Program-made: the position numbers and the translations under genes
Assembly (NCBI GenBank): GCA_000209815.1
Contig: FP929036.1
Coordinates: forward strand, 2,062,511 to 2,126,510
DNA from: Butyrivibrio fibrisolvens 16/4
GTDB taxonomy: Bacteria; Bacillota; Clostridia; Lachnospirales; Lachnospiraceae
Length of the DNA: 64,000 nt
Direction of reading: 5' to 3'
The notes under the pieces: generated by a model
Told to the model about the DNA's origin: nothing
Seen by the model: the letters and a program-made list of their open reading frames with translations, nothing else
Database searches by the model: none
In this document: piece after piece, positions 13,464 through 58,785 of the stretch
Numbering within the stretch: the stretch's first letter is position 1
How the letters are laid out: each line of letters begins with the position of its first letter

Positions 13464-14161
13464 TTACACCTTATCCTTAATAATGATTGTCATCATATAT
13501 TTAGAATCATCAGGAATCATCATTGCGCCATTAAAGATCTGCTCTGTCTCCATGCCACAGTCTACTACCGCATATACAGATATTTTATCAGCCTGTTCCA
13601 ATTCAAGAAGACGTTCTTTAATACTGGCCACATTTCTACCGCTTTTCATAATTATTTTTGTGCCAGAGATTTTAAGTTCTTCCTCAAGATTTCCCTGACC
13701 AGAAATTATATGAATATTCTCATCCCGCTCACTAAGAAGGATCCCTGCTGCTGCAGCAGACCCACAGAAAGAAGTGATACCATTAATAATCTCTACTTCT
13801 ATGCCATCCTTCTTTGCAAGCTTCATTATATAACCAAATGTTGAATAAACTGTGGGGTCTCCAATGGTAAGAAACGCAAGGTTGTAGCCATCCATAATAA
13901 GCTGCCTGTACTTATCGTAAAATTCTGCATGCATCTTCGCAAGAGCCTCTTCATCCCTTGTCATCTCAAAATCAAAGCTTATTGTTTTTTATATTTAAGT
14001 TCTGGCACTGCAGGAAGTGCTATCTGAAAAGCACGACACTCATACTTATCTGCCTTTGGAAGACAAATAACATCCGCCTCTTTTATTGCCCTGACTGCCC
14101 TAAGAGTAAGCATCTCAGGATCACCTGGTCCTACACCTATTCCATACAATATTCCCGCCAT
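13464..14161 (-). CDS. cobI: Precorrin-2/cobalt-factor-II C20-methyltransferase (frame broken)
   Basis: Tetrapyrrole methylase. The N-terminal GIGVGPGDPEMLTLRAVRAI is the family signature; TIGDPTVYSTFGYIM and the GITSFCGSAAAAG segment are typical of the CobI/CbiL branch that methylates C20 in corrin-ring synthesis. The frame breaks at 13985-13990 (six A on the coding strand); seven A gives a 232-aa protein, the normal length. No other cobalamin gene is in this window. It follows the fic gene by 26 bp with AAGGAG before ATG. Alternative name: cbiL. Confidence 0.88.
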
Positions 14162-14187: not shown

Positions 14188-15365
14188 TTATTCGTCTTTT
14201 AGTTTAAATCTGTATTTTCCTTTACCCTTCCCTTTAACAGGTATGATAATCTCCAAGCTTTTCAATAAATTAATTATTTCACTCGCTCTAAAAGACTTCA
14301 CATTAATTGCCTGCTCCACATCAGATCTTCCAAAATATTCTTTTTGCCTAATTCTTTATATAATATTTGTATTTGCTTTTTTGAAATCTCAGAAACAGCA
14401 TCTAATTGCTCTATATCAATAATACCTACTAGATTATCTCGACCAATGTTTGTTTTTACCTTCAATGTTTGGTTTTTCACCTCCAATGTTTGGTTTTTCA
14501 CCTCCAATGTTTGGTTTTTCGCCTCCAATGTTTGGTTTTCTCTTAAAAGTATACCTTCCACTAATGTGCATTTCTCTATTATGAAGTTCATTATTTTCAT
14601 CAAGTAAAAGATTTCTAAGGAAAATCTCAACATATTCTGTAGTCTCATGAATGCCTTTTTGCAGATTAGAATAATTAGCTCTTACTAATGCATTTCTAAA
14701 ATACCAAGCATTTTCAGCAAATATATCATTAGTAGCTTCGAATCCCAAAGTTCTTAAATATTTAATAAAAACACTGCAGTCGTTCTCGTGTTTCCTTCTT
14801 TAAAAACATGAATCTGCCAAAGATTGGATACAAACCTAGCTAAATGTTTTATTACCTCATCAATATCTAGACCTTTATAAGAAAACTCACGCTCAACTGA
14901 TAAATCATATTCCAAGGTTTCCTTCAAGTCTAAAGCACTTCCATAAGTAACAGTATCTCCATCTAAAACCCACTCTTTTTTTGTAACATTATAATCTCTA
15001 ATAGTACCAGCATGGTCAAATATCCCATTAAATAATCTCTTATGAATTGACAGATATTGGTTAGGAGTAAATGTAAATGCTTTTTCTGACAACACCGCAG
15101 CTATTCTAGCAGAAACTTTATCAGCTTCCTCAGTCCTATTATCATCTTTTTCAGGTTTATGCTCATAATATGTATTTAATAACTCTTGTGCCTCTTCAAA
15201 AGATATTTCACCCTCAATATTTCTAATAGCTGTATCTTTCAAATATTCAGATGTTTTCAAACCATCAACAGCTTGTAATCCAATAGCTGTATTCCATGCA
15301 TTGCCTTTTTCTCTTTTACTAGGCTCTAGCTGCCTATAATATTCTTCAAATGGATCTCGTTCCAT
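14188..15365 (-). CDS. Fic/DOC-family protein with tandem heptapeptide repeats (three frame breaks)
   Basis: A Fic protein that would transfer AMP or another nucleotide moiety to a target protein. The catalytic loop IHVFKEGNTRTTAV near residue 195 matches HxFx(E/D)GN-R, and the flap-side phrase TIRDYNV lies before it. Start ATG 15365 has GGAGG seven bases upstream. Three frame breaks, at 14767-14771, within or beside the repeats (14453-14457 or upstream) and at 14341-14345, must be corrected to give about 392 aa. The C-terminus is then a winged-helix-like domain (SKKQIQILYKEL, ASEIINLLKSLEI) typical of Fic proteins. It lies 36 bp after jetD and probably belongs to the same defence transcript. 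Confidence 0.85.
14461..14539 (-). repeat. 21-bp tandem repeat inside fic
   Basis: Three full and one partial copies of a 21-bp unit (coding core CCAAACATTGGAGGTGAAAA) occur within the fic C-terminal linker. The unit is open in two frames, giving either KPNIGGE or NQTLEVK heptads. Copy number could vary between strains by slippage. Confidence 0.9.
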
Positions 15366-15401
15366 GAAAACCTCCAAACATATAATATAATCACCTTTTC
15401 T

Positions 15402-16639
15402 TTATATCTCAGTTATTTCTTCTAAACTTATTATCTCTTGCTCTAACTTACAATTGTTTTCAAGCATATACTCTAGAACTTCTTTGTATTTACCGCTTTC
15501 TATTAAGTTTTTAGCTTTAACTTTATCATTTTCCGCAAGTTCTTTTCTGTATTGCTTATATTTTTTAAGATATTCAGCATTCATAAACTTTGATTCAAAA
15601 TCAATATTTGTAGTCATTTTTAAATGCTCTAATATATAAAATCCATCCGGATCTAAATCGCCAAAATGATACCAATTCTTCCGCTGATTATGTTGATTAA
15701 TCAATTTTAAGAAATTTGTCTTAGCCGAATTATGATAACCTGCAAGATACATACTAAAGGTATTTTGAGCAAAATACCTATTAAATGAAGTAAGATTCTC
15801 GATTGTTACAATATTATCATCATAAATTTCTATGTTCTTGATATCACCTATAGCATCTGATATTAATCCTATAGAAATATCATTTTTAAACTGATTTGAT
15901 GTCCGTCCTGAAACACAATTTTTCCATTCCCCTTAAAATAAATATATGAAGGGTTAGCAAAAATCTTGTACTCTTCTAAAATAATATGTTCAACTTCACT
16001 TTTAACATCAATACCTTCAAGTCGCTCCTCGTAATTACCGTATTTACGAAGAATAGCACATACCTTACTTTTATATTTATTTTCAAATACTTTACTGTCA
16101 CCAAACTTTAAAATAGAGAGTTCCCTTTCAAGTAATGTAGTCTTGTTACCTATTATTGTTTCCATTAACTCAACAATAATCTTTAATTCATCAAAACTAT
16201 ATAATGGCTTTTTCCCCTGATATAATCTTTGTAACTGTTCATCACAAAACATCAAAATAACATCGTCTTTATTGATGCGAATCACATCTTCAAGATATGC
16301 TTTTTGTTCAACTATAGTTTGATTCTTAGTAACTCTACCTAAAAGGCTATAATACGTATCCCACTTTTCAGGTAACGCAAGAATTTTCTTAACCACTAAA
16401 TTCTTATCATACAAAATGTTTATCAATCCATTTTCGAATAACTCTCGAAGTTCGTCTTCAAACTGCTTCACCTTATCAATATCAGCAAAATCACTATCAT
16501 AATCGGTAAAGACATCAGTGGGCAACAATTGTATATGTCGATTAACTTTACAATCTCCATCATACATTTTGCTTCGCTCATATTTATCTATTAACTTATT
16601 TAAAACAGTCTTTTGACTTTTAGATAATTTATCCTGCAT
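15402..16639 (-). CDS. jetD: Wadjet protein JetD, Toprim-type nuclease subunit (frame broken)
   Basis: JetD is the topoisomerase-VI/Toprim-like nuclease of the Wadjet anti-plasmid complex. The N-terminal half (DUF3322-type) is helical; the C-terminal half (DUF2220) carries the Toprim signature, with a conserved Glu in TIENLTSFNRYF and the acidic motif HFGDLDPDGFYI. The frame breaks at 15883-15887 (five A on the coding strand); six A gives 412 aa, matching JetD family length. The start overlaps the jetC stop by 11 bp. Position as the last jet gene agrees with known Wadjet order A-B-C-D. Confidence 0.92.
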
Positions 16640-19600
16640 AATGTCCCTCTATTGCATAAGAATAATTTCCTTTAGGATACAATGAAACAGTTGTTGTTAT
16701 AAATTGACCTATACTAGCAATCTTTTCTGGTGGTGCGGCATATATAACTTGAAAATCATGCTCTTCAAAATACTTAACCATTTGTTCAATACGTTCTCTT
16801 GATAATGCAGCAAAAGCCTCATCAATAAATGCTAATCTAGCACAGCATTTATTCTTCGGATAACATTGCATTAAACTAGCAGCCAAAATGATAAAATATG
16901 GAGTCTGCTTTTCACCATTGCTTGCAGAACCCTGCTTTTTTGATAAATCAGATGTTACTAATTTATTATCAATCGTTCTGGCGATTTCCATATCATAAGT
17001 AAAATATCTTCTATAATCTGTATACTCTAGCTCATCTTCTTCGTCTAAAATAGTATCCATGAACTGTTTAATGTCATGCTCCATTTCTTCATCATCGGCT
17101 CCACTAGCTAAGTAAAAATCGGCTCCCGCATATTCTGATAGCTTACTGCTAATCCTAAAAAATATAGCTCTATCAGCCTTTTCTTTCATTTTGAACTGAT
17201 AAGTATCCTGTCCAAATGGTATCTGCTTTAACTCTTTATTAATAGCTCCAATTTCATCTTTTGCCAACCTTATAGCTTCATTTATTTCACCAATGAAATC
17301 ATGCATGAATGCACTCTGAAGATTTTTCTCCTGATCATGCATTTTATTTTTTGCCTCTTCAAGCTTCACATTTGATAAATTACTAAGCTCTGCTCTATAG
17401 AATGGAATATATGCTACTCCACGCTTACTATTGTCGGTTTCGGCAATCTTACAGTAATCCAGCTGTTTGTCTTCTAATACCTTAGCAGCCTTGTCCACGT
17501 CAGTGGCTAGATTTTTAACATAGTTCTCTGTTACAACCTTTATAGTACCCCTTGATTCAAAAGCCCTGCCATATTCAGCTTCTGCATCAAAAACTATTTC
17601 TGGATTATTCTTTTTCTTATCATCATATAGCTCAGCTGCTTTTGATAACTCCTCGGTTAACCTAGCCTCATCTGCATTGCATTGATTAATACTTCCCTCT
17701 AAGCGTCCTATATCCTGCTGTAACTTATCGTATTTTTATTAGCTTCATCCTTCAATTGTTTTGATTTTTCTTGTTCTATTAGAATACGTGCAAAATCAGG
17801 ATTTTGTTCATATTCTCTTATATCTGATTCTATCTCTGCTTTTCTTAACTTACTATTAGATAACAAAGAAGGCGCATCAAATCTATAGTTATCAATATTG
17901 GTATCTAGTTTTTCAAGTGAAGCAATTTTAAGCTTGCAATCATTTTCAACTAATACACAATTATCAATCTCCTCTTTTAGCTTTTTACGCATATTCTCAG
18001 CATGTCGCTTTTGCAATTTGATAGCATCACTACCAAGACACATCTCTGTTTTCTTTAAATTTAAGCATGAAATAGCGTAGCTCTTTGATAACATACCATC
18101 CCTTGTTAGTCCGCCCAATGGATATTCATGAAGCTCATCTATGTTTTCACACAAATGAATTCCATTCAAAAGATAGTTAGCATATCTTCTAGCAAAAATA
18201 TTTGGAATGCTTAGTATCTCAGCTGCTGAGCCTTTAACAATATCACTTTCTGGTAATTTGTCGGTCACTACAACATTAACATCGTATAGCTTCCTATTAT
18301 GCACAATTTTAATCACATTTTTACAGTATTTTGCATCTACAATAAGATTATATCTCTTCCTGCCTAAGAAAGTTTCTATTGCAGCTCTAAAACCGTCATC
18401 TTCAATTTTTGCTACCAATTCTGCAAAGGTTCTTACTTCAGTTTTTATACCTTGCTCTAACAATTCAGTTTGAATAATATCCTTTGCTTTTCTAACACTA
18501 GGAGGAAGATGTAGTATATTGGCATCCAATTTTTTTATTATTTGCTCCTGCTCGTTAAGTTTTTCTTTTAAATCTTCTCTCTCAACTTCATTTTTATATT
18601 TAATTTTTGAATATTTATTGAATGTATTTTTTGAGCATCGACAAGCTTAATAAATAATTCGCTTTTCTGGCTACCAGCTACATTTTCGGATAGATAATTG
18701 CAAAAAGTACCAATTTCACTTTTTAGTTCATCTTCATCAGCTATCAACCACTCCAAATCTGTATCTATTAGACTTTGTAATTGTCTAAGCTTTTCTACAT
18801 CCTTTTCCTGCGAACATATTTCTCTATCAAGTTCTTCTAATTGCCTATTAAGATTATCTATCGATTTCGTAAAGTTCTGAAAGTCCGTGTTATTTGTAGC
18901 GGCATTATATCTTTCGTCAGCGAGCTTTCTTTCATTTTCAACTGCGTCTATTTTTGAAGTTAGTTCTTTTAATTCCTGCTTATATTGAATTATTCTTAAA
19001 TTCATTTTCTTTAATTCTTCTTCGCATAATTTTACTCGCTGTAAATCTAAAAGCATATCTTTGACCATAAAATTATGTTGCTTCTTTTCATAATCAGATG
19101 AAAATCTCTCAATCTCTTCAAGAAGCACCTTCGACTCTAGTAAGTTTTCATACATATTTCTTACTTTTTCAAATAATTCTTTTTGCTCTCTCAGCTGATT
19201 AAGGGATTCGATAGGATTAGCATCTAACACGCATTCTGAGATAAATTGATCTATATTATTTTCAGGATTAAATGCCATCATCTTAAGAAGCTTCTTTTTA
19301 TACATTGCTGAATCACATCGCATACCAAGACATCTTATTATTTGATCTTTTGCTTTATCACGACCGATGAAATCATTTCTATTTAATTTTTGTTTTTCAC
19401 CAATAATCTATTTTTAGGATAGACACTACGAATGCCTTCTTTTGTCTCGCAAAATTGAATATTTTCAATTTTTGTATCACGCAAAATAAACCAGCTTGAG
19501 CTGGCATCATTTTCACTTGAAGATTCTATTTCTACACCGATAACCATATATGCATTTTCATCTGGAGAGAAAAATTCCATTGCTATATAACTTACAACAT

Positions 19601-19874
19601 CACCTTCTCTTAAAAATCTGTTTGATTCGTTACTCTTGGTATCTCCTCTTACATAGGCTTTTACATTTCGATCCTTATCCTTTGCTGCAGTATTAAACTG
19701 TGTATTTCCTGTAAGTAAATAAGTCATGGCATCAAGTACTGTAGATTTTCCACTTCCATTTACACCAGTAAAAAGAGTTGAGCCGTCCAAACTTATATTT
19801 TCATATTGAAACCTAGACCAATTAATAAGTAACAATCTAGTAGCAGACTTTCTATTGTTATTCATCGAACTCAT
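16629..19874 (-). CDS. jetC: Wadjet SMC-like ATPase JetC (three frame breaks)
   Basis: JetC is the SMC/MukB-like motor that extrudes and senses small circular DNA. The N-terminal Walker A is FTGVNGSGKSTVLDAMTY near residue 36. A long coiled coil follows (about 230-900, dense in E, K, L) with a hinge-like centre. The C-terminal head has the signature-like ASNGEKQTPYF and Walker B LAFIDEAFAALS. The frame breaks at about 19387-19397, 18604-18608 and 17733-17737, each five A on the coding strand; one A added at each gives 1,082 aa, the expected size. The gene overlaps jetB and jetD, showing a coupled operon. Confidence 0.93.
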
Positions 19875-20513
19875 CTATTTCTTCCTCTTCAAATCCATCA
19901 TCTTCATCAGCATATTTAAATCGTTCAGTAGCTTTTTCAACAAATTGCCTAAACTCTTCTCCATTTAATGCAAATTGTATGGAAGGATATATTCTTATAC
20001 TACAATCAACCTCGCCTATTTTTCCAATAACATCGACCAAATTATATTTCTTAAAAGTATCAATAGTGTTTATCATTAATGTTTTATTATCAATCTGATC
20101 TTTTAATCCGTATTTCTCTAATTCAAATCGCAAATCTGTAATTCCTATAATAATATCTCGCTTAAGAGAGCCCTTAGAAATTCTATCAACATATATTGTC
20201 CATAAGCAGCATAATACAATGCTTTCAAATTTTTTAACTGAATTCGATTTGCCTGTATTCTTCTAGTCTCGCTAACACTCCTGTCATTTTGAAGCATAAC
20301 CACGCCATTTTCTCTATCTACAACAATGTCAAAGCCAATGTACTTAAAGTACTCGCTAAAAGGGTCCGGTCTCTTAGCTATAAAAAAATATATTTTTCGA
20401 CTATCATCATCTTTATCTCTAACTATAAAAGTATTCTTTAGTAATCGTCTGGCCGCACGTTGAAACTGCTCCTTTTCTGACGAAGTATAATTATCCCAAT
20501 GTTCTTCTATCAT
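19858..20513 (-). CDS. jetB: Wadjet protein JetB, kleisin-interacting MksE/DUF4194-like subunit (frame broken)
   Basis: JetB is the winged-helix KITE-type subunit that binds JetA in the Wadjet complex. The N-terminus SEKEQFQRAARRLLKNTFIVR and the central PFSEYFKYIGFDIVVD match the DUF4194 pattern. The frame breaks at 20230-20235, where six A on the coding strand should be seven; the join then reads KKFESIVLCCLWTIYVDRIS, a conserved helix of this family. The corrected protein has 218 aa and a very acidic C-terminus. Start overlaps the jetA stop. Confidence 0.9.
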
Positions 20514-21911
20514 TTACTATTCCTTCTTATTTCAAAATCCTTGATGATTAAATCATTACTTTCAACATAACCGTCTTTTGTTATTATCGTATATCCGTTA
20601 TCCATTGAATACGCAACCGCTGATAAACTAACTAGCATATCATCCTTTGATATGAGCGGTAATTCAGCTGCGCTAACAACTACTTTGTTCTCCATTTGTT
20701 CATCTAAGAAATTCTTCATGCGCTCTTTGGAATATGGATTAAATGCGCTTTTTCTTTGTGCTTCCATAGCCTTTAATTTATCTTCATCAGTAAGAACTTC
20801 ATACTGTTGTTTAATATTCTTCTTAATGGCCTTTTGCTTAGCAGGGTAGCGAATTGAATTCAAATCAATAAATTCATTTTTCTGAAGAGAAAATAAATCC
20901 ATATAATCCTCGGGCATATCATCTTTTAGACCTAATTCATCCATCTCTTCAACAATATATTTAATAGTCTGTTCAACACTGCCTCTGATATCTGCACCTT
21001 TATTCCTTAAAAATCGTCCTCGCCCGACAGCAATTTGCAGATAAATATTAATCTTATGCTTAATATCTGCCATAATTGCATCATACTCATTTTCAAGGAA
21101 ATGTTTGGTCTTTTGAATCATATCTAAGACCTTATCTTGGGCCTCTTCTTTTGAAATATTGTTTTCAACCGAACAACCTTCCAGTATTTTTTCAAACAAT
21201 TCCTGATTATTCTCAAACTCTTTGATACTATTAATAATCGAGCTTCTGTAAATATGAATGTTTTGCCTTTTTGTTAATCTAGAATACTCCTTTATAAAAT
21301 CTCCATCGCAATAAGAAATAATATTCTCCGTAAGGCTTTCGAAAGAATTTTCATTCATCATTTCTTCAATTATTTTTCTAATAAATGTAGCTAGTTTCTT
21401 CAGAGCTTTTGATAAATTTCTACTATTCTTATAAACGCTTAATAGACAAAGCGCATATGGATTTTCCTCCCATTGTTCATGACTTCTAAGAATGTTATAA
21501 ATATTAAAAATATAACTGGAGAATTCTTCTTTTTCAGGAACCTTCAGTCTTTCCAAAAATTCGGCAAGCATGATTCCTTGTTCAGTCATAATTATCTGTT
21601 TTTCAAAAGTCGCCTCATCATTGTCTTCTTCAAGCCAACCCACATCAGCATCTGCAAATTTTCTTATAATAGCCGATGCCATTTCAGAATAATTTTTCTC
21701 AATTTCGCCATCATCAAGTATTAAATCTGAATGAATTTCATTTAGATAGAATGCAACTGCATCTCTGATTTGGTTACGCGATAATCTATATGATATTTCA
21801 TTTTCATATTCACCATAAATAATTAACAAACATTCTGCGTATATTCTATTGTTACTTCCGCTTCCCAGATAATTAAAAATTATTCGGAACCACATCAAAT
21901 AGCTTTACCAT
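20510..21911 (-). CDS. jetA: Wadjet protein JetA, kleisin-like subunit (frame broken near N-terminus)
   Basis: JetA is the MukF/kleisin-like subunit. The sequence resembles the JetA family formerly named DUF5716 (IYAECLLIIYGEYENEISY near the N-terminus; FNPYSKERMKNFLDEQM near the C-terminus). This would place it in a type other than the DUF3375-bearing type I; the exact type needs a profile search. The true start is ATG 21911 with AAGGA upstream, reading MVKLFDVVPNNF. The frame then breaks in the T5 run (21875-21879) and needs four or seven T, giving 466-467 aa. It is the first gene of jetABCD and follows a terminator. Confidence 0.9.
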
Positions 21912-32210: not shown

Positions 32211-35200
32211 TTAGCGGAAGTAATCTACACCAGATTCGAACAATTTCATATCCTGATTTCCGTAGATATTGAGAGCTACGCCATCACCGATACGCTCAGC
32301 GTGACACATCTTACCGAATACTCTACCATCTGGGCTAGTAATACCCTCAATCGCACAGTAGCTTCCGTTGATGTTCCATTCCTCATCCATTGTAGGATTT
32401 CCATTTTCATCTACGTACTGTGTAGCAACCTGGCCATTTTCAAAGAGCTTCTTGATCCACTCTTCTGAGGCAACGAAACGTCCCTCGCCGTGAGAAGCTG
32501 GTGCACAATATGTCTCACCTAAATGAGCACCTGCAAGCCATGGTGACTTGTTGCTGACTACCTTCGTATATGCGATTTTTGAAATATGACGTCCGATTGT
32601 GTTGTATGTAAGTGTAGGAGCATCAGCCTTCTGTGTATGAATCTCTCCATATGGTACAAGACCAAGCTTGATAAGAGCCTGGAAACCATTACAAATACCA
32701 AGCATAAGACCATCTCTATTATCAAGAAGACCCTGAATAGCTTCCTTCATCTTTTCATTTCTAAATGCTGTTGCAAAGAACTTTGCAGAACCCTCTGGCT
32801 CATCACCTGCTGAGAATCCGCCTGGGAACATAACAATCTGTGACTGAGCAATTGCTCTTGAGAACTCGTCAACTGATTCTCTAATGTCCTCTGCTGTCTG
32901 ATTCTTAAATACCTTTACATTGGTGATTGCGCCAGCCTTCTCAAAGGCTCTTGCTGAATCGTACTCACAGTTTGTTCCTGGGAATACTGGAATAAATACT
33001 CTAGGCTTAGCAATCTTGTTCTTGCAGATGTAGAAGTTGTTAGCCTCATAAACACCTGTATCTACAAGGGATGCATCCTCATAGCTGCGTGTCTTAAATA
33101 CCTTCTCAAGTGTACCTGTCCAAGCTGCGATAGCTTCATCTACAGAAATCTTTGCATCTTTATATGTGAATGTAGAATCCTCTGTAACCTCACCAACTTC
33201 AAATCCACAATCTGAAAGGCCACGCTTTTCAAGCTCATTAATGATTGCAAGAGCTCCGTCCTCTGAAACTTCTACTACGATATCACCGATGACACAGCCA
33301 AAGAGCAATACTGACTGGCACTTCTCATTAAGCTTTACACCAAACTTGTTACCAAATGCCATCTTTGAAACAGCTGGAACAAGTCCGTATGCATCAAGTG
33401 CATATGCAGCCTTAATATTTCCAAGCTCAACCATATTTCTTACTACTTCAAATATAGCCTTAGCCTGGCTGTAATTTGGCTGATCATAATTATCACGAAG
33501 AATTCTAAGTAAGAAGAGCTTATCTCCTGCTTCCTTAAGTTCTGGTGTAACAATATCCTGTTGCTTTGCAACATCTACTGCAAAGGAAACAAGTGTAGGT
33601 GGAACATCGATTTCGTTGAAAGTTCCTGACATCGAATCCTTTCCACCGATTGATGGAAGTCCAAACTCCATCTGTGCTTTATATGCACCAAGAAGCGCTG
33701 CAAATGGCTGGCTCCATCTCTTTGGATCCTCGCTCATTCTGCGGAAGTACTCCTGGAATGTAAATCTAATCTTCTTGTAATCACCACCAGTTGCAACGAT
33801 TCTTGAGATAGATTCAAGAACTGCAAGCTGTGAACCGTGATATGGTGACCAAGAGCTGACATAAGGATTAAAGCCATATGCCATCATTGTAACAGCGTCT
33901 GTTTTGCCATCAGCTACTGGCACCTTTGCCACCATTGCCTGTGTCTCTGTAAGCTGATATTTTCCACCGAATGGCATAAGTGTTGATGCTGCACCGATTG
34001 AACCATCGAACATCTCAACAAGTCCCTTCTGTGAGCAAACATTTAAATCTGCAAGACAATCCAGCCATGCTGCCTTAAAGTCGCCCTTAGCAACATCCTC
34101 TGCTACCTTTTCAATACCAATCTTATCTATATATTTATCATTATTATCTGGAAGCTCTACATAAACATCTGTCTCCTGATGAGCACCGTTTGTATCAAGG
34201 AAAGCTCTTGAAAGGTTAACAATCTCCTTGCCTCTCCAGTTAAGTACAAGACGTGGCTCCTCTGTAACAACAGCCACCTCAATAGCCTCAAGATTTTCCT
34301 CTGCTGCATACTGAAGGAACTTATTTACATCAGCAGGTGCAACAACTACTGCCATACGCTCCTGTGACTCAGAAATGGCAAGCTCTGTTCCATCAAGACC
34401 TGCGTACTTCTTTGGAACCTTATCAAGATCTACCACAAGACCAGGTGCAAGCTCTCCGATTGCAACTGATACACCACCGGCACCAAAGTCATTACACTTC
34501 TTTATAATGTAAGAAACCTCTTCTCTTCTGAAAAGTCGCTGAATCTTTCTCTCTGTAGGTGGATTACCCTTCTGAACCTCTGCGCCACAAACTGCAGTAG
34601 ACTCTGTATTGTGTGCCTTCGAAGAACCAGTAGCACCACCGATACCATCACGACCTGTACGTCCGCCAAGAAGAATAATCTTATCTCCTGGATCAGAATT
34701 AAGACGCTGAACAGCACGTCTTGGAGCAGCACCCATAACAGCACCAATCTCCATACGTTTTGCAACATAATCTGGGTGATAGATTTCCTTTACGTAGCCT
34801 GTAGCAAGACCAATCTGATTACCATATGAGCTGTAGCCGTGAGCAGCCTCACGAACCAGCTTCTTCTGTGGAAGCTTTCCTTCGATTGTATCCTTTACAG
34901 AAACTGTAGGGTCTGCTGCGCCAGTTACGCGCATTGCCTGATATACATAAGTACGTCCTGAAAGTGGATCGCGGATTGCACCACCAAGACAAGTAGCAGC
35001 GCCACCAAATGGCTCTATTTCTGTAGGATGATTGTGTGTCTCATTTTTAAAATTGATAAGCCACTCTTCCTCTGTTCCATCTACATTAATAGGTACAACA
35101 ATTGAGCAAGCATTAATCTCATCAGATTCTTCCTGATCTGCAAGCTTTCCATCTGCCTTAAGGCGCTTCATTGCAAGAAGTGCAAGGTCCATAAGACATA

Positions 35201-36010
35201 CGAATTTATCATCTCTATCCTTATAGAGAATCTTGAAATTATCAAGATAGTCATTAAAAGTATCCTGGATAGGCGCTTTGTAATAGCCATCCTCAATAGT
35301 AACGTTTTTAAGTTCTGTAGAGAAAGTTGTATGTCTACAGTGATCAGACCAATAAGTATCTAAAACTCTGATTTCTGTAACAGTTGGATCTCTGTGTTCT
35401 TCATTGGAAAAATAGTTTTGAATATGTAAGAAATCCTTAAAAGTCATAGCTAAATTTAAGGAATCATATAAAGTGCGTAAATCTTTTTCAGCCATAGAAG
35501 TGAAACCGTCAAATGTATTGACGTCGGCTGGTTCATCGAAATTATTAGATAGAGACTCTGGCTTATCAAGTGAAGTCTCTCTAGAATCAACTGGATTAAT
35601 ACAATGCTTCTTAATAGCATTAAATTCATCATCAGATATGCTACCCTCGATTACATAAGTAGTAGCTGTGTGAATAGTTGGATTTTCATTTTCGTTCAAT
35701 AATTTGAGACACTGCTCCGCAGAATCTGCACGCTGGTCGAACTGACCTGGTAAAAATTCAACAGAAAAACACGACCGTCGTATTCAAACGACTCTTCGTA
35801 AACATCATCAACAGGAGGTTCAGAGAACACTGTCTTGACCGCTTTCCTAAAAACATCGTCAGAAACATCCTGAATATCATAACGAACCAGAACTCTGACT
35901 CCCGTAACACCCTTGATGCCTAAGTAACTTCCTATTTCAGAAAACAGTGACTTGGCAGATACTGCAAATTGTGGCTTTTTCTCAACGTAAACTCTTCTTA
36001 CTTTGCCCAC
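32211..36010 (-). CDS. purL: Phosphoribosylformylglycinamidine synthase, fused form (frame broken near N-terminus)
   Basis: The large single-chain FGAM synthase that converts FGAR, glutamine and ATP to FGAM in purine synthesis. A PurS-like N-terminal domain (VRRVYVEKKPQFAVSAK) is followed by the two PurM-like ATPase halves (SDHCRHTTF, FNPYVSSWSPYHGSQ) and a C-terminal class-I amidotransferase (FPGGFSAGDEPEGSAK, LGICNGFQALIKLG with Cys, SHGEGRF). The frame breaks at 35765-35769, five T on the coding strand; six T restores VFSVEFLPGQFDQRADSAEQC and a 1,266-aa protein. Start is GTG 36010 with GGAGG upstream. An essential-type gene being broken strongly suggests a sequence error. Confidence 0.96.
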
Positions 36011-45836: not shown

Positions 45837-45985
45837 CGCATTTTTCCATATTTTATTAAAGTAAATCTATAGCGCGAAACTCGAGTTATTGCGCGAATTA
45901 TGTTAATTATTTAGACAATTATCCATCAACCTCTTATTAGTGCAAATATAACCCCTCCGTACTGGAGGTCAAAGACGGTAGATCT

Positions 45986-46915
45986 TTAAGAATTGATTAA
46001 GAATCTCTCACACAGGTAAATAAATGCTGGTAAGGTCAAAAGCATGATAATCGTATTTTGCATAATTGTTGTAGTAGCATATTTTACATCTGCATCATAC
46101 TTGCGTCCTATGATTACATTAAGTGAGCCTGATGGCATTGCTGTCAACAGAACCATTGTCATAGCAAATGACTTTTCCACATGTAAAAAGAACAAAACCA
46201 CAAGTGTAATAGCTGGCACCAAAATCATTCTAAAGAAGGATGTAATGTAAGCCACCTTATCTTTTAGTACTTCGTCAGGCTTAATAGTATAAAGCTCCGC
46301 ACCAATAATCATCATTGAAACAGGAAGCATACATCCGCCTAACACATCTACTGTCTCTGTTAAAACCACTGGGAAACGATATGGAATCACATAAAGAATA
46401 ATTGCAGCGATAGCAATCCATATGATTACATTCTTCATAATTGCATAGATGGAAATCTTTTCCTTCTCGCTCTGCAATAGCATTACGCCTATAGAAAAAT
46501 ACACTACATCAAAAATGCAATTATATACTGCTGCATATAAAAGACCTGAGCCAGCCACAGTTTCTCTAATAATAGACATGCCAATAAAGCCAGTATTGGC
46601 AAATGCGATAAGCAAAGAAAACATTCCGCTCTTGGTCTTATCCTTAAAGAAAGGGCGACTGCCTAAATAACATAATGAAATAACAATAGCATAGTACACT
46701 AACGTAAATACGATAGTATTACCAATTCCTATCATCTGCCTGATAGAAAAATCTGCCTGCGATGATACAAACAAATTAGCTGGAAGAAAGATGTATATCA
46801 ACATTTCTGATAATCCTTTCTTCACAGCCTCATCCATAATTTTAAAATGTGCAGCAAAAAATCCTGCCGCCATCAAAACAAAAATTTTTAATGTAATTGA
46901 AACTAATACACTCAT
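45986..46915 (-). CDS. AEC-family (auxin efflux carrier-like) transporter
   Basis: A 309-aa membrane protein with about ten hydrophobic helices in two inverted halves. Family features: FANTGFIGMSIIRE near residue 105 and LTAMPSGSLNVIIGRKYD near 262 around the crossover helices. AEC proteins move organic acids or amino-acid derivatives across the membrane. It follows the 2-hydroxyacid dehydrogenase by 1 bp, so it may export a hydroxy or keto acid made by the upstream enzymes. A short GC-rich hairpin near 45953-45967 follows its stop. Confidence 0.92.
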   Translation of the reverse strand: MSVLVSITLKIFVLMAAGFFAAHFKIMDEAVKKGLSEMLIYIFLPANLFVSSQADFSIRQMIGIGNTIVFTLVYYAIVISLCYLGSRPFFKDKTKSGMFSLLIAFANTGFIGMSIIRETVAGSGLLYAAVYNCIFDVVYFSIGVMLLQSEKEKISIYAIMKNVIIWIAIAAIILYVIPYRFPVVLTETVDVLGGCMLPVSMMIIGAELYTIKPDEVLKDKVAYITSFFRMILVPAITLVVLFFLHVEKSFAMTMVLLTAMPSGSLNVIIGRKYDADVKYATTTIMQNTIIMLLTLPAFIYLCERFLINS

Positions 46916-46916
46916 C

Positions 46917-47894
46917 TTACCTAACTAATTCAGTAATCTCCTCATTTTTCCCAGCGAGGAAATATCCGAGATTCGCCCCACTGATTCTTTGTAGTTTCTC
47001 GATAGACTCCTGACTGTAGAACGCACTGTGAGGTGTTATGATTACATTTTTTCGGTGAAGCAAACTACAAATATTTAAATCTGGATTCTCTTCTTCAAGA
47101 ACATCTATGCCCGCGCCTCTAATCAATCCCCTATTCAGAGCAGTTACAAGAGCCTGTTCATCAACGCTGCCTCCACGCCCTACATTAATAAATATCGGTC
47201 TACGCTTCATTTTAACAAAAGCATCCTCATTAAAAAAGTGTCTGTTTTCCTCGGTAAGATTCATATGATTAGTAATAATGTCAGCTCTGGAGAATGCCTC
47301 CTTTTTGTTCACAAACTCCACTCCAGCCACATCATACTCACTGGCAGCGTATGGATCCACAGCCAAAACCTTCATTCCAAGGGCAATAGCTATTGTTGCC
47401 ACACGTCTGCCAATTTTCCCAAATCCAAATATAGCCAGTGTCTGACTGCATAAATTGGGATTTCCATCTATGGAATAATACTTCCACTCCCTCTTATCAT
47501 TGATTTGTCTGTCATAGAATTTCAGATTACGATTCAGGGCACACATCAGTGCAATGGCATGTTCTGCCACCTCCTGCGTACAATATTCCTGAATATGGCA
47601 CACTGCCACATTGTTCTGCTTAGCGCTCTCAAGATTGATATTTGAATATCCCACGCCACTAACTGAAATACATTTTAAACTTGGGCAGGCATCAAGTATC
47701 TCTTCATCAGTCTCAATAAATCCAGTAACCAGCCCATCTGCATCCTGCAATACCTTGATAAAATCATCCTTATCCTTATAGGCATGCACTACCGTATCAA
47801 CTGGCTCTCCAAGTGCCTCTTCAATGCTTTCAATTGTGATGGAATAATCCTCTTCCAGTGCGCTTTCATAATCCGCAATTACGATTTTTTTCAA
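46917..47894 (-). CDS. D-2-hydroxyacid dehydrogenase (PGDH/CtBP-like)
   Basis: A 325-aa NAD-dependent enzyme that interconverts a 2-keto acid and a D-2-hydroxy acid. The Rossmann motif FGFGKIGRRVA lies near residue 153; catalytic Arg is in FINVGRGGSVDE, Glu in AGIDVLEEENPD and His in ITPHSAFYS. The start is TTG 47894, overlapping the aminotransferase stop (TTGA) with GGAGG upstream. Coupling to an aminotransferase suggests a transaminate-then-reduce sequence on one amino acid, followed by export through the AEC protein. Confidence 0.92.
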   Translation of the reverse strand: MKKIVIADYESALEEDYSITIESIEEALGEPVDTVVHAYKDKDDFIKVLQDADGLVTGFIETDEEILDACPSLKCISVSGVGYSNINLESAKQNNVAVCHIQEYCTQEVAEHAIALMCALNRNLKFYDRQINDKREWKYYSIDGNPNLCSQTLAIFGFGKIGRRVATIAIALGMKVLAVDPYAASEYDVAGVEFVNKKEAFSRADIITNHMNLTEENRHFFNEDAFVKMKRRPIFINVGRGGSVDEQALVTALNRGLIRGAGIDVLEEENPDLNICSLLHRKNVIITPHSAFYSQESIEKLQRISGANLGYFLAGKNEEITELVR

Positions 47895-48960
47895 ACCTTT
47901 ACCTCCGCTAAAATCTCCTTGATTGCAATCAGTACAACAGCCATTTCCTGTTCTGTTCCAATGGTGATTCGAAGATATTTATCTAGTTTTTATCAGCAAA
48001 GTGACGAGTGAGAATCCCTTCTTCTTTCAGCTTCTCACAAAGCTCCGATGAAGAAATTGCATCATGATAACAAAATACAAAGTTTGCCTTTGATGGAATA
48101 ACATGAAATCCCAGCTTCTCCAAATCTGATTTGAACTGTTCTCGATTAGTTACAATTCTGTTAATACATTTATCCAGATAATAGGTATCCTTAACTGCTG
48201 CAATTCCAGCTGCCATAGTAACAGAATTAAGATTAAATGGATTAAAAGAAAACTTTATGCTATTCATATCTGCAATAATTTCTTTTGACGCAATGGCAAA
48301 TCCGATATGAGTTCCCGCCATATTTCTAGATTTTGAGAAGGTACGAACAACAACAAGATTTGGATATTTTGTAGCGAGCGGCAAACATGTCTCACCCCAA
48401 TAATCAGCATAAGCCTCATCCACTATTACCATTCTCTTAGGATTCTTTTTAACAAGCTTTTCAATATCCGCTATTGGAATTGCTTTTCCCGTAGGATTAT
48501 TAGGGTTTGCAAAAATAATATCCCCTTCCAAATCCATATAATCATTTATGTCGATTGAAAAATCATCCTTTACAGGAATCTCTTCCATATCAAGTCCGTA
48601 TGTCTTAGCGTATGTGCGATAGAAGCCATAAGTAATATCTGGAAAATAGATCTTCATTCCTCTTCTGAAGAAACTCATTAATACAAAGGAAAGAACCTCG
48701 TCTGCTCCATTTCCAACAAAAACCTCTTCCTCTGTTACTCCATATACAGTTGCAACTGCCTTACGAAACTCGTGACAATGTGGATCAGCATAATAGCTCA
48801 TATTCCAAATTTCACTTTTTGAAATTGCCTCAAATACCTTTGGTGATGGTGGAAGAGAGGTCTCGTTTGCATTTAATTTGATGTACAGCTTATCCTTTGG
48901 CTGCTCTCCTGGAACATAAGGCTCCATCTCTTTATATTCATCTACTAAAAAAATACTCAT
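47891..48960 (-). CDS. Histidinol-phosphate-aminotransferase-like class-II aminotransferase (frame broken)
   Basis: A pyridoxal-phosphate enzyme of the HisC branch. KLNANETSLPPSP near residue 25, GNGADEVLSFV, NPNNPTGKAIP, VIVDEAYADYWG and the Schiff-base Lys in RTFSKSRNMAG are all visible. The frame breaks at 47987-47991 (five A on the coding strand); six A extends the C-terminus through DKYLRITIGTEQEM to 356 aa, the normal HisC length. Start ATG 48960 has GAAGGGA upstream. No other his genes are near, so it probably acts on another amino acid here. It is coupled to the dehydrogenase. Confidence 0.9.
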
Positions 48961-48981
48961 TATATAGTGTCCCTTCATTAT

Positions 48982-49818
48982 TTATACACGTACAAGTGGA
49001 AATGTCATGCAATGTGGTCCGCCGCCTGCCTTTAAAATCTCGGTAATATCCATCTCTATTACCTTCATTCCTCGCTTTACCAATTCCTCATTAACCTTTT
49101 TATTCTGCTTAAGCGAAAGCACTGTATGATTTCCAAGAGCCTGTAAATTACAGCCATGTAAGAAGATTGCTTCCTCTGGAACAGGAATTAATTCCACTCC
49201 TCTTTCTTTCAAAAGCTTCTTGAAATCCTCTGGCAAACCGTCTACATATGCCACAGCCAAATGATCATCCACCAAGTTAAAACACATATCTAAATGTAAA
49301 TATTCTTTCTTCAAAGGAACCCCTGTAACTTCATATCCAAGTGGCTCCAATATAGCTTTCAGCTCCTTTAGACCTTCCTCATCAGTTCTGTCAGCCATGC
49401 CAACTGCCACCCATTTTTCATTCATAAACATGAAGTCGCCCCCCTCAAAGAGTCCCTTCTTCACTTCTCCTATTTTGGGAATACCAAGCTCAGCCATACG
49501 CTTTTCATAATCAACATGCTCCTTGTAGCGCATGTCCAGCTTGAAGTTTCCAAGGATATATCCTTCCTTTACACACCCACCAAAGTCTCTTGCAAAAACT
49601 GAGTTTGGACGCTCTTCATCTGCATCTAAAAACTCCACTTCAACACCAGCATCCTCATAGCTTTTTACAAACTCCTCATGTTCACGAAGCATAACCTCCA
49701 CATCCATAGTTGTATCCTTCCACTTTTTTGCTATCTCATTTATTGGCGCTGGCTTTAAATATTCAGGTCTTGAAACCAAAACCTTTTTTAATTTCCCCGT
49801 ACCATTTTTAACAAACAT
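48982..49818 (-). CDS. Amidinohydrolase of the arginine deiminase/DDAH superfamily
   Basis: A 278-aa guanidine-group-modifying enzyme. The pentein-fold residues are present: FARDFGG, EGGDFMFM (Glu/Asp), HLDMCFNLV (catalytic His) and GGGPHCMTFPL (nucleophile Cys near residue 270). It is shorter than arginine deiminase ArcA and closer to DDAH or the N-omega-hydrolysing branch. It would convert arginine or a methyl- or hydroxy-arginine to citrulline. Its start overlaps the RocB-like gene by 11 bp, which supports an arginine-type substrate. Confidence 0.9.
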   Translation of the reverse strand: MFVKNGTGKLKKVLVSRPEYLKPAPINEIAKKWKDTTMDVEVMLREHEEFVKSYEDAGVEVEFLDADEERPNSVFARDFGGCVKEGYILGNFKLDMRYKEHVDYEKRMAELGIPKIGEVKKGLFEGGDFMFMNEKWVAVGMADRTDEEGLKELKAILEPLGYEVTGVPLKKEYLHLDMCFNLVDDHLAVAYVDGLPEDFKKLLKERGVELIPVPEEAIFLHGCNLQALGNHTVLSLKQNKKVNEELVKRGMKVIEMDITEILKAGGGPHCMTFPLVRV

Positions 49819-51444
49819 TTAAAAATACCTCCGTAGTTTTCATAATAAGCTTTGGTAACACACCAACGCTGTATGGTATCTGTAATCTTTCTGTGCTTTT
49901 GTGTGCGTCCTTTCCATAGACTCCAAAATTGACTGCCTTAATGTTTAACTTTTTAATCTGCTCCAATGGCAGTGGATATAGCTGCTGCATCTGTGGGAAG
50001 TTATGCTTAAGTGTCTCTATAGATTCCATGGAATCATCCAGTGATAAATAGCTGCTATCTGACAAACTCGGGAAAAATCCATCCATCTTATATGTGATGT
50101 TATATTCTTTTTCCACAGTCTTAAGAATTTCTCCAAGCTTATCCACTGTTTCATCATCCTTTTTCAAGGTATTATGTGGACAATAAGGAGTTGCATAGTA
50201 AAGCACTACAACTGGATGATAAATATTTGCCCTTGCAAGCAAAATTCGTATATACGATACAGGAATCTCCCTTTTATCCACTCCAGCCTCCTGTAGCTTT
50301 ACAGTCTCCTCAGCAAGAATTTTATCTATGGATTCATCCTGATTCTTTACCATCTGATATAAATCTTCATATGACATAACAGACCAGCTGTTTTTTATCT
50401 GCTGAAAATCTTTTCCCGACTTTTCACAATAGGCTTTGTACTTAATATTCAAATCTACTGTAGCTCTTCTAACAGCCTTATCACCAACAGTCACAAGCTT
50501 TTTAGTTATGTCACGAACATCTGAATTCAAAACAAAATAATTAAAATATACCAAAGCTTCCTTGGCTGTCTGCACGTTATACCAGCCCTTCAAATCCTTA
50601 CTTTTCAAAAGTGTAGGAGGCAGAGCATATTCCCCCTCGTAGGAATCCGAATACTCAGGATTCAAATTTAATTCCTTTATTAACTCCGCCATTACTGTGG
50701 TAGGATCATAACCTTCGAAGCACTGTCCCACATGTGTTTCACGTCCCTGAATATAAAAGCAGGGAAGAAGCTTTCCGCCTACACCAGTGTATATATAATG
50801 ATGCTTGTCCCCTGGATACATAGGGCAAGTGTAGTCATTATTTATCGCCAATACGTACTCTAAGTCATATTCTTTTTCAGATTTTCAATTACTTCTATTC
50901 CTTCAATAATTCCCGTATGAAGATTCTCCTCAACAGGATTCAAGGAAAGAAGAATATTACCAGACAAATTATCTACATGCTCAGATAGTTCCTTAAGCAA
51001 AATCATGAATACTGCATCACCGCTTTTCATGTCACAGGCACCGCGACCAAATAAATATTCACCTGACTCCAAATCCTTTTTGACTTCTTCTGACAATTCA
51101 ATCTGCTTTAACTGTTCTGCCAAACCATCACAATCAAAGGCATATCCAGAAAGCGCTCCATAATCTTCCACCCCAACGGTATCTGTGTGACCATGGAAAA
51201 TTATGGTTTGACTATTTTTATCCTTCTGGCCAAGCAACAGTGCAAACACGTTTCTTCGCTCCAATTTATCATTCTTAAGTGTCTGCACAATAACCTGATT
51301 AGGATGTTCATTAAAATATGGTATAGCTCTTAAATAATCTTCAATGAAGAGCCCTATATCCTTTTCTCCCTTTGTAGTATTTACGCTGCTTACAGCCACC
51401 ATATCTTTTGTCAGCTGCAACATTTCTTCATTTATTTTCAACAT
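49808..51444 (-). CDS. RocB-like M20-family peptidase/deacylase (frame broken)
   Basis: A zinc-dependent M20 hydrolase of the RocB (arginine utilisation) branch. TIIFHGHTDTVGVEDYG carries the first metal ligands, FGRGACDMKSGDAVF the second set and LNPVEENLHTGII the Glu ligand pair; the C-terminal part is the long RocB extension. The frame breaks at 50873-50877 (five A on the coding strand), six A joining both halves as LKKEYDLEYVLAINND. Start ATG 51444 is preferred since upstream sequence forms a terminator hairpin; corrected length 545 aa. It probably releases an amino acid from an acyl or peptidyl conjugate for the next enzymes. Confidence 0.88.
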
Positions 51445-51457
51445 TTTCCCAAAATAA

Positions 51458-51493
51458 AAAGGCACTACATCACCAAGAATGTAAAGCGCCTTT
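51458..51493 (-). terminator. Intra-operon terminator between the ABC transporter and the rocB-like gene
   Basis: AAAGGC-GCTTTACAT... pairs with ...ATGTAGT-GCCTTT, then TTTTATTTT on the minus strand. It would let the transporter be made in excess over the enzymes. Confidence 0.65.
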
Positions 51494-51501
51494 GCTTTCT
51501 C

Positions 51502-52245
51502 CTATATTACTTTGTCTAAAAATGTTTTAAGTCTTTCTGACTGTGGATGCTCAAAAATCTGCTCTGGTGTTCCCTGCTCAATCAACTGGCCTGCATCCAT
51601 GAAGATTACCTTGTCTGCCACTTCCCTTGCAAAGCCCATCTCATGGGTAACAACCACCATGCTCATTCCCTGGGATGCCAGTTCTTTCATTACATCTAAA
51701 ACTTCTCCTACCATCTCTGGATCCAAAGCTGATGTGGGCTCATCAAACAACATAATCTTAGGATTCATGCAAAGGGCTCTGACAATTGCAATACGCTGTT
51801 TTTGACCACCTGAAAGCTGACTAGGATAAGCCGCCGCCCTATCCGCCAAACCAACTCTCTCTAAAAGCTCCATTGCATATTCTGTAGCTTCATCCTTTGA
51901 CTTTCCTAAAAGTCTGGTTGGTGCGATAGTGAGATTTTTCAAAATGTTCATGTTAGGAAACAGATTGAAGTGTTGGAATACCATTCCCATTTTCTGACGA
52001 TGCTTATTTATGTCCGTCTTTGGATCTGTAATTAAAACATCATCTACAAATATATTTCCCTCTGTTGGAATCCCTAAGAGGTTCAGCGAGCGTAAAAGTG
52101 TTGATTTTCCCGAACCAGAAGGTCCAATAATTACAACAACCTCCCCCTCATCTACATTTATGGAAATATTATCCAGAGCCTTGATTGTTCCCCCTTTATA
52201 ATATTTCTTCAGGTTTTCCACTCGAATTATTTTGTTATCTTTCAT
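51502..52245 (-). CDS. Amino-acid ABC transporter ATP-binding protein
   Basis: A 247-aa ATPase of the polar-amino-acid (GlnQ/ArtP/HisP) type. Walker [15 protein letters not shown] is near residue 37, the Q-loop [11 protein letters not shown] follows, then the signature [11 protein letters not shown] and Walker [13 protein letters not shown]. Start ATG 52245 has AAGGAGG and overlaps the permease stop by 11 bp. It powers the importer formed with the permease and the binding protein upstream. Confidence 0.96.
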
Positions 52246-52965
52246 TAGCTCGTAACCTCCTTTCCAATTTTCCAACGAGATATGTTAATACAAGTACCAA
52301 AAGAAGGTAGATAGCTGCCACACCAAACAGTGGAAGAAATGCTGAAAATGTACGTCCGCGAATTAAATCTCCTGCCTTTGTTAAATCAGTAATTCCGATA
52401 TAACCTGCAATTGATGTTTCCTTTATAAGCACAATGAACTCATTACAAAGAGCAGGTAAAACATTCTTTACCATCTGCGGAATGATTATATGAAACATTG
52501 TCTGAATATAATTAAATCCAAGTGAGCGACCTGCCTCAAACTGTCCCTCTGGCACTGCCATAATTCCTGCTCGAATTATTTCTGCCACATATGCACCTGA
52601 GTTAATACCAAAGGCAAATACCGCAATTTGAACATCATTGTTTGATGTAGCAAATACAATGAAATAAGCTATTAACAGTTGTACTACAGTTGGTGTTCCT
52701 CTAATTACTGTTAGATATATTTTGCAAATTACATTGCAAACACATAATACGTAGTATCCTAAATTTTTCTTTTCTTCAGACTTTCAATGTTCTTATCATA
52801 GGTTGAACGGATGGATGCCACTACAGTACCAAGAGCTATACCAATCAATACTGCAAACAATGTAATCTCCAATGTTACAAATAATCCTTCGATGATTAGC
52901 TTATATCGTTCACTCTCTAAAAAAACAAATTTGAAATCTGAAATAAAATTACTGAGCCACATCAT
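52235..52965 (-). CDS. Amino-acid ABC transporter permease (frame broken)
   Basis: A HisM/GlnP-type permease. Membrane helices lie at about 24-48, 60-95 and 190-225, and the EAA-like loop reads [19 protein letters not shown]. The frame breaks at 52764-52768 (five A on the coding strand); six A makes [14 protein letters not shown] continuous and gives 243 aa, a typical length. Without correction the N-terminal third is separated. It lies 2 bp after the binding-protein gene. Confidence 0.92.
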
Positions 52966-52967
52966 CT

Positions 52968-53741: not shown

Positions 53742-53789
53742 ACCATTACCTTCCTTTTCCTTTATTATCGTAAATGCGTTTTTGAATAT

Positions 53790-53855
53790 AAAAAAAGAGG
53801 CACATGTCAATCGACATATGCCCCTTTGCACATTCACGCTTTATTTATGTGCAAA
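53790..53855 (-). promoter_or_regulatory. Attenuator-like leader of the amino-acid uptake operon
   Basis: Directly downstream of a consensus promoter: hairpin 1 TTTGCACAT/ATGTGCAAA (53825-53855), then a terminator hairpin (53796-53825) with TTTTTTT. The ATGTGC element occurs both in hairpin 1 and in the terminator's second arm, so the first GCACAT could pair with either. That allows mutually exclusive structures. Confidence 0.7.
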
Positions 53856-53885
53856 ATTATATCTATCCTTTATTTTGTTTGTCAA
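53856..53885 (-). promoter_or_regulatory. Consensus promoter of the amino-acid uptake operon
   Basis: TTGACA, 18-bp spacer, TATAAT on the minus strand. A perfect 12-bp palindrome ACACAATTGTGT (53900-53911) lies 15 bp upstream of the -35 box and may be an activator or repressor site. Confidence 0.85.
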
Positions 53886-53961
53886 CAAGAATGTTTATAA
53901 CACAATTGTGTATATTTATACTGCGTTAGAAATAGATTTTATTGTTAATTCTTAAAGCAAA

Positions 53962-58762: not shown

Positions 58763-58785
58763 TTTTTCCTCCAAAAACCTGGCCT

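What the first reader, a model, noticed from the sequence alone, without database searches (positions are those of the whole stretch)
15402..21911. Complete Wadjet (JetABCD) anti-plasmid system
All four subunits are identifiable in canonical order with overlapping starts: kleisin-like JetA, KITE-like JetB, SMC-like JetC with Walker A and B, and Toprim nuclease JetD with E and DxD motifs. JetA looks like the former DUF5716 family, implying a non-type-I variant. Frame breaks would make automatic annotation split it into about nine hypothetical fragments and miss the system.
Basis: partly seen in the sequence, partly recalled or inferred. Interest (0 to 1): 0.75.

Follow-up and report, generated by a model that had tools for sequence, protein, structure and literature searches.

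The report
Wadjet type I cassette plus Fic
This is an ordinary bacterial anti-plasmid defence system (type I Wadjet) in a rumen bacterium; its genes look broken, most likely because the assembly loses bases in runs of A or T, and related species carry intact copies.

Summary
jetA, jetB, jetC and jetD lie in order with overlapping ends at 15402-21911, split into nine open frames. Each fragment's best PADLOC hit is a type I model. PADLOC's JetA1 models are the DUF5716 ones, so "non-type-I" is wrong.

Four of 28 other same-genus genomes carry the locus, three with complete 467/218/1082/412-aa genes. Against these three, the window shows six small base losses in jet coding, no insertions, no in-frame stop in 2168 comparable codons and dN/dS about 0.15. 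Conserved genes elsewhere in this genome break too: 7 of 48, reverse control 1 of 53. Assembly error is much likelier than decay, though breaks are denser here than in the genome sample.

The jet+Fic block is 82-100% identical to relatives, against 66-81% on its hydrolase side, so it was probably exchanged between species as one cassette. Fic is not a general Wadjet partner (2 of 34 other loci).

New member of a known kind; low interest.

The parts
20510..21911 (-). jetA (kleisin-like, DUF5716 / Pfam JetA); one frame break close to the start codon, the rest open as one frame 20510-21898
   Evidence: PADLOC JetA1 1.5e-66; Pfam JetA PF18982 4.2e-97; intact 467-aa copies in three relatives
19858..20513 (-). 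jetB (KITE-like, DUF4194/MukE-like); one frame break
   Evidence: PADLOC JetB1 4.7e-30 and 7.3e-20 for its two pieces; intact 218-aa copies in four relatives
16629..19874 (-). jetC (SMC ATPase, Walker A, hinge, Walker B); three frame breaks
   Evidence: PADLOC JetC1 best in all four pieces, 1.1e-17 to 1.6e-52; AAA_29 and SbcC_Walker_B; breaks by alignment
15402..16639 (-). jetD (Toprim nuclease); one frame break; Toprim acidic motifs present downstream of the break
   Evidence: PADLOC JetD1 1.1e-54 and 2.2e-46; Pfam JetD_C; predicted fold of a relative's 412-aa JetD matches topoisomerase VI A, MksG and JetD structures
14191..15377 (-). fic (Fic-domain protein, PADLOC candidate PDC-S72), fifth gene of the co-transferred block; one clear frame break near the end of the Fic domain, later part also disturbed
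   Evidence: PADLOC PDC-S72 2.5e-113 and Pfam Fic 3.7e-11 on the first piece; intact 410/417-aa copies in two relatives; extent and break
14443..14539 (.). 21-bp tandem repeat, 4.7 copies, encoding a repeated 7-residue linker between the Fic domain and the C-terminal part of fic; copy number differs between the two intact relatives
   Evidence: alignment of two intact relatives

Best explanation
A type I Wadjet operon (jetABCD) of a Pseudobutyrivibrio species, exchanged between species as one block with a downstream fic gene. Its frame breaks are most likely artefacts of an assembly that drops bases in A/T homopolymers. Mechanism, inferred from the family: two JetABC SMC motors load on DNA and extrude loops; on a small circular plasmid they complete the circle and collide, which releases the JetD Toprim nuclease to cut it, while the large chromosome is spared. 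Shown here: gene content, order, motifs, a predicted JetD fold, purifying selection, intact relatives, sharp block edges. Inferred: activity, circle sensing, cutting, and that the real chromosome has open frames.
For: Type I profiles for all subunits; Pfam. JetC of an intact relative hits the solved JetC chains 8dk1 (4.4e-8) and 8dk2/8dk3 (4.5e-7) over its N-terminal 12-131. Model of a relative's JetD (pLDDT 84.6, pTM 0.53): best Foldseek match C. glutamicum nuclease 8b7f, E 1.1e-10, TM 0.27; VIA-align 1d3y_B topoisomerase VI A Z 17.6, rmsd 2.8, 180 aligned; 8b7f_A Z 13.7, rmsd 13.8, 327 aligned; JetD 7til_B Z 13.1, rmsd 20.7, 337 aligned. Intact 467/218/1082/412-aa genes in three same-genus genomes. 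Six small gaps in window jet coding, all losses; none among the three relatives. 0 in-frame stops in 2168 comparable codons, dN/dS 0.146-0.152, against 0.136-0.162 among the relatives. Cleanly alignable A/T runs: window shorter in 5 of 50, 6 of 52 and 6 of 50, never longer; control pair of relatives 0 of 63 changed. Elsewhere 7 of 48 conserved genes broken, reverse control 1 of 53; a purL-like gene and an aminotransferase in this window broken. Mechanism: passages of the review PMC10586767.
Against: Break density is above the genome sample. By alignment there are 7 breaks in 7.46 kb of the cassette (six jet, one fic) against 8 in 51.9 kb, Poisson P 2e-4; counted by the same tblastn method as the sample, 5 to 6 breaks show, depending on the relative chosen per gene, P 0.0065 to 0.0012. 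Against G014, A/T runs of 6 or more are shorter in 6 of 10 in the cassette and 3 of 18 elsewhere in the window, Fisher P 0.035. Low GC (0.315) and more long A/T runs may explain part. Real slippage could give the same kind of change. The jetD loss is not a clean run-length difference against G014. Whole-length JetD superpositions have high rmsd and low TM, so the match is firm for the Toprim part rather than the domain arrangement. No reads were available. Function was not tested.
Confidence: 0.87

Rival explanations
1. A recently decayed Wadjet locus: the frame breaks are real slippage mutations at A/T runs and the strain no longer makes JetABCD.
For: Breaks and shortened A/T runs are denser in the cassette than in the samples from elsewhere. 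In two of the four same-genus relatives the neighbouring fic is broken or truncated (L009, L012), so this region does decay.
Against: Six losses and no gains in jet coding, no stop in 2168 comparable codons, dN/dS as low as among intact relatives. Conserved genes, a purL-like gene among them, break in the same assembly. The assembly is poor in A/T runs of 8 or more (0.014 against 0.0925 per kb in G003, the one genome compared).
Confidence: 0.1
2. A five-gene defence unit in which Fic is a working partner of Wadjet, for example a toxin released when JetABCD is blocked.
For: fic starts 24 bp after jetD in the window and in two relatives, lies in the same high-identity transferred block, and is present, whole or broken, beside jetD in 4 of 4 same-genus relatives.
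Against: A fic homologue lies within 4 kb of jet in only 2 of 34 other loci of the order, upstream of jetA in both; some of these contigs are short. Of 59 genomes of the order matched by this PADLOC Fic model, 46 have no JetA match. fic is broken in 2 of 4 relatives while jetABCD stays open in one of them (L009) and jetBCD in the other (L012, whose jetA is cut by the contig end).
Confidence: 0.07
3. A condensin-like JetABC (MksBEF-like) with a chromosome role rather than defence.
For: In the order, 11 of 34 JetA loci have a whole JetABC without JetD beside it, so JetABC can exist without the nuclease.
Against: This locus has JetD with its Toprim motif and a relative's JetD has the expected fold. 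JetA is found in only 4 of 28 other same-genus genomes, unlike a core condensin.
Confidence: 0.03

Closest known systems
Wadjet type I (JetABCD; MksBEFG of Corynebacterium glutamicum)
   Same: Four genes in the same order; JetA DUF5716, JetB DUF4194, JetC SMC and JetD Toprim profiles; predicted JetD fold of a relative matches MksG 8b7f and P. aeruginosa JetD 7til.
   Different: Only weak sequence similarity to the solved proteins: JetC of a relative 4.4e-8 to 8dk1; its JetD found no PDB chain by sequence at E up to 0.1. Reading frames are broken in this assembly. A fic gene follows jetD.
Native Wadjet of Clostridium cellulovorans (PMC12287153)
   Same: Chromosomal jetABCD in a Bacillota host. 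Abstract and passages seen: deletion raised conjugative plasmid uptake about five orders of magnitude.
   Different: Not compared by sequence here.
Fic-domain defence candidates (PADLOC PDC-S72; SoFic)
   Same: An intact relative's Fic hits PDC-S72 at 2.8e-184 and SoFic only weakly at 2.6e-6; motif HVFKEGNTR fits the Fic motif, which I recall as HxFx(D/E)GNxR.
   Different: Carries a variable 7-residue repeat linker and sits behind jetD; no defence role shown.

Membership tests
Wadjet type I | jetA, jetB, jetC, jetD adjacent, same strand, in this order | tested here: met
Wadjet type I | Each subunit matches type I (JetX1) models better than type II or III | tested here: met
   Best hits JetA1, JetB1, JetC1, JetD1 for the nine window pieces and for an intact relative; where type II/III models appear they are weaker by many orders
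Wadjet type I | JetC is an SMC ATPase with Walker A and B | tested here: met
   AAA_29 3.7e-18 and SbcC_Walker_B 4.4e-17 on window pieces
Wadjet type I | JetD has a Toprim nuclease domain related to topoisomerase VI A / MksG | tested here: met
   JetD_C in the window; model of a relative's JetD matches 8b7f 1.1e-10, 1d3y_B Z 17.6, rmsd 2.8, 180 aligned; E281 and GDxDPDG invariant in 6 of 6 aligned JetDs
Wadjet type I | All four reading frames intact | tested here: inconclusive
   Six breaks in this assembly, but the pattern points to assembly error; intact in three same-genus relatives
Wadjet type I | Restricts small circular plasmids | not testable with these tools
   needs a bench test
Wadjet type II or III | Type II/III subunit profiles as best match | tested here: not met
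Conserved five-gene Wadjet-Fic system | fic beside jetABCD across distant hosts | tested here: not met
   fic homologue within 4 kb in 2 of 34 order-level loci, upstream of jetA in both

The most novel reading that the evidence does not exclude
jetABCD and fic form one transferable two-layer defence cassette in Pseudobutyrivibrio: JetABCD cuts small plasmids, and Fic, tuned by its variable repeat linker, modifies host targets when an invader blocks Wadjet. The cassette is swapped between species by recombination, often at the same site next to a hydrolase gene.
Probability: 0.06. Interest if true: 0.55.

Novelty: new member of a known kind. Interest (0 to 1): 0.2.

Why it matters
It adds a clear type I Wadjet to a rumen genus, with a practical meaning: strains carrying it should resist small plasmids used as genetic tools. 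It is also an example of a defence system likely to be hidden from automatic annotation by homopolymer errors, and of a defence cassette exchanged between species with much more diverged chromosomes. Nothing about the mechanism is new.

Tried and rejected
Non-type-I reading: rejected on profiles. Fic as a general Wadjet partner: rejected by survey. JetA fold: model too poor to use (mean pLDDT 45.6), so not searched. Sequence search of a relative's JetD against solved structures found nothing at E up to 0.1, and of its JetA only two weak hits that look unrelated; JetD was then tested by fold. The lipoprotein-like 549-aa gene between hydrolase and jetA in relatives has no Pfam match and is missing at this place in the window. 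Rfam and tRNA scans of the window found only a tRNA-Trp at 45.4 kb. Literature: Wadjet with rumen (2 papers), at least two of Wadjet, JetABCD, Fic (19 listed), Pseudobutyrivibrio with defense system (15 of 23 listed), at least two of Fic domain, defense island, Wadjet (10 of 48 listed), and Wadjet, type I, JetD, plasmid (18 listed): by titles and abstract starts none is about a Wadjet-Fic cassette or Wadjet in Pseudobutyrivibrio; I did not read these papers apart from passages of PMC10586767, PMC12287153 and PMC10123090. My ORF filter missed JetD in L236, which located; I count L236 as having JetD. The single hit of the reverse control involves the same gene pair (L132/L153) as one of the seven forward hits, so that pair is ambiguous.
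Full report
OBSERVATION. The listed ORFs show nine minus-strand frames between 15402 and 21898; the jetA start codon is at 21911. Each piece hits PADLOC Jet models of the expected subunit in the expected order, always best on the type I set. Pfam agrees for JetA, JetB (DUF4194), the JetC ATPase halves and the JetD C-terminus; the N-terminal JetD piece has no Pfam match. An intact relative (G023) scores JetA1 1.4e-72, JetB1 7.6e-65, JetC1 2.8e-170 and JetD1 1.5e-117, with type II JetC models at 7e-14 or worse.

INTACT COPIES. A search of 60 relatives plus the own genome with the JetA frame found it in 6 of 61: the own genome, 4 of 28 same-genus genomes, and a weak partial 26% match in one same-family genome. 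Three of the four same-genus loci hold full 467/218/1082/412-aa genes; the fourth (G018) holds whole jetB, jetC and jetD, with pieces of jetA on two contigs. That the window genome is Pseudobutyrivibrio follows from 'same genus' plus these titles.

BREAKS: ERROR OR DECAY? Aligned to the three intact relatives, the window has six small gaps in jet coding (jetA 1, jetB 1, jetC 3, jetD 1), all losses of one or two bases; the relatives have none among themselves. Each adjoins an A/T run of 5 or 6 in the window (shown against G014), while such runs and their edges cover 6.7% of the cassette. In the relatives' frame 2168 codons can be compared (codons with gaps left out): no stop, and dN/dS 0.152, 0.146 and 0.150 against G014, G023 and G006, like the 0.136-0.162 among the relatives. 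At cleanly alignable A/T runs of 5 or more the window is shorter in 6 of 50, 6 of 52 and 5 of 50 against G014, G023 and G006, never longer; a control pair of relatives differs in 0 of 63. Elsewhere in the window, against G014, it is shorter in 0 of 11, 1 of 11 and 3 of 37, never longer. In 1.2 Mb of the same genome, 7 of 48 conserved genes matched by G003 queries (of 272 queries) carry 8 frame breaks in 51.9 kb; in the reverse test 1 of 53 does (of 897 queries). The reverse test is not a perfect mirror, since broken query genes drop out, and its one hit is the same gene pair as one of the seven. In this window a purL-like gene at 32214-36010 (GATase_5, AIRS_C, FGAR-AT linker) and an aminotransferase at 47894-48960 break at 97% and 99% identity to relatives. 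A/T runs of 8 or more are rare (0.014 per kb against 0.0925 in G003).

Against the error reading: the cassette has more breaks than the genome sample predicts. By alignment 7 in 7.46 kb, expected 1.15, Poisson P 2e-4; by the tblastn method used for the sample 5 to 6, P 0.0065 to 0.0012. A/T runs of 6 or more are shorter in 6 of 10 in the cassette and 3 of 18 elsewhere in the window against G014, Fisher P 0.035. Lower GC (0.315 against 0.377 for the window) and somewhat more long A/T runs explain at most part of that. Uneven coverage of an accessory block would do it, but that is a guess. I put error at about 0.88, decay at about 0.1.

HORIZONTAL EXCHANGE. In 300-base bins the block from about 14400 to 21900 is 82-100% identical to the relatives, falling to 66-81% on the hydrolase side; below 14400 the alignment falls under 65%, where the neighbours differ. 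Synonymous divergence is about 0.2 in jetABCD but 1.8-2.0 in the hydrolase next door, saturated in the aldo-keto reductase, 1.5 in the gene beside lrgA and 0.5-0.8 in carB/carA. Divergence also differs between jet genes for one pair (jetA 0.38, jetC 0.13 against G023), which suggests repeated recombination. The hydrolase-side neighbour is the same in the window and in G014, G023 and G006, so the block was probably swapped at a shared site there; in the G018 contig pieces no ORF like the hydrolase is listed near jetA, so that copy may sit elsewhere. An extra 549-553-aa gene stands between hydrolase and jetA in the three relatives and is missing at this place in the window.

FIC. The block includes fic (14191-15377), a PADLOC PDC-S72 match. 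Intact copies have 410 and 417 aa and differ in the number of a 7-residue repeat (21-bp repeat in the window). It is broken or truncated in L009 and L012. In 34 other JetA loci of the order a fic homologue appears within 4 kb in 2 (L225, L236), and in 1 of 3 further loci (L030, two genes downstream of jetD). The model PDC-S72 matches 59 of 344 genomes of the order, of which 13, the own genome included, also match JetA. So co-transfer is a feature of this genus, not evidence for a general Wadjet-Fic system.

MECHANISM. From the review PMC10586767 (passages): type I JetABC is a dimer of SMC dimers, JetD a Toprim nuclease, circular DNA under about 50-100 kb is restricted, and total loop extrusion is the proposed sensing step. 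From PMC10123090 (passages): mutating two acidic Toprim residues of MksG drastically impairs its nuclease activity. Here the JetD model of a relative (pLDDT 84.6, low pTM 0.53) finds C. glutamicum nuclease 8b7f as best Foldseek match (E 1.1e-10, TM 0.27); its C-terminal part superposes on topoisomerase VI A (1d3y_B Z 17.6, rmsd 2.8, 180 aligned), whereas the whole-length matches to 8b7f and 7til have rmsd 13.8 and 20.7. So the Toprim domain is firm and the domain arrangement is not. The acidic E and D-x-D are invariant in six JetDs, and the window carries both. That these are the catalytic residues here is inferred. Activity is inferred from the family; PMC12287153 (abstract and passages) reports about five orders of magnitude for a native Bacillota Wadjet.

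VERDICT. A standard type I Wadjet; none of the searches listed under Tried and rejected showed one reported for this genus. Probably intact in life, with a hitch-hiking fic. New member of a known kind.

Noticed in passing
L213, L214, L215, L216, L217, L218, L242, L243, L244, L245, L246: In 11 of 34 JetA loci of the order a whole type I-like JetABC has no JetD beside it (2 more loci, L224 and L241, are cut or broken). In 9 of these 11 genomes no JetD_C match exists anywhere at E 0.01; a very divergent nuclease is not excluded. L213's operon sits near a uvrA gene, L245's near dnaX and ybaB. These may be nuclease-free condensins that tools would label Wadjet.
   Followed up: partly
window 45966-53933: About 8 kb is 96% identical to G014 with synonymous divergence 0.04-0.07 in three of four genes tested and 0.28 in the fourth, below most other genes tested: a second recent exchange between species.
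   Followed up: partly
window 32214-36010, 47894-48960, 49811-51465, 52238-52965, 13470-14161, 58065-58774: Other genes with frame breaks against relatives, the first four at up to 97-99% identity, a purL-like gene among them: annotation of this genome should allow for frame errors.
   Followed up: yes
L010:7373-9022, L009:8595-10244, L011:8153-9814, L013:1333-2994: A lipoprotein-like 549-553-aa gene without Pfam match (one copy tested) lies just upstream of jetA in relatives and is missing between hydrolase and jetA in the window.
   Followed up: no
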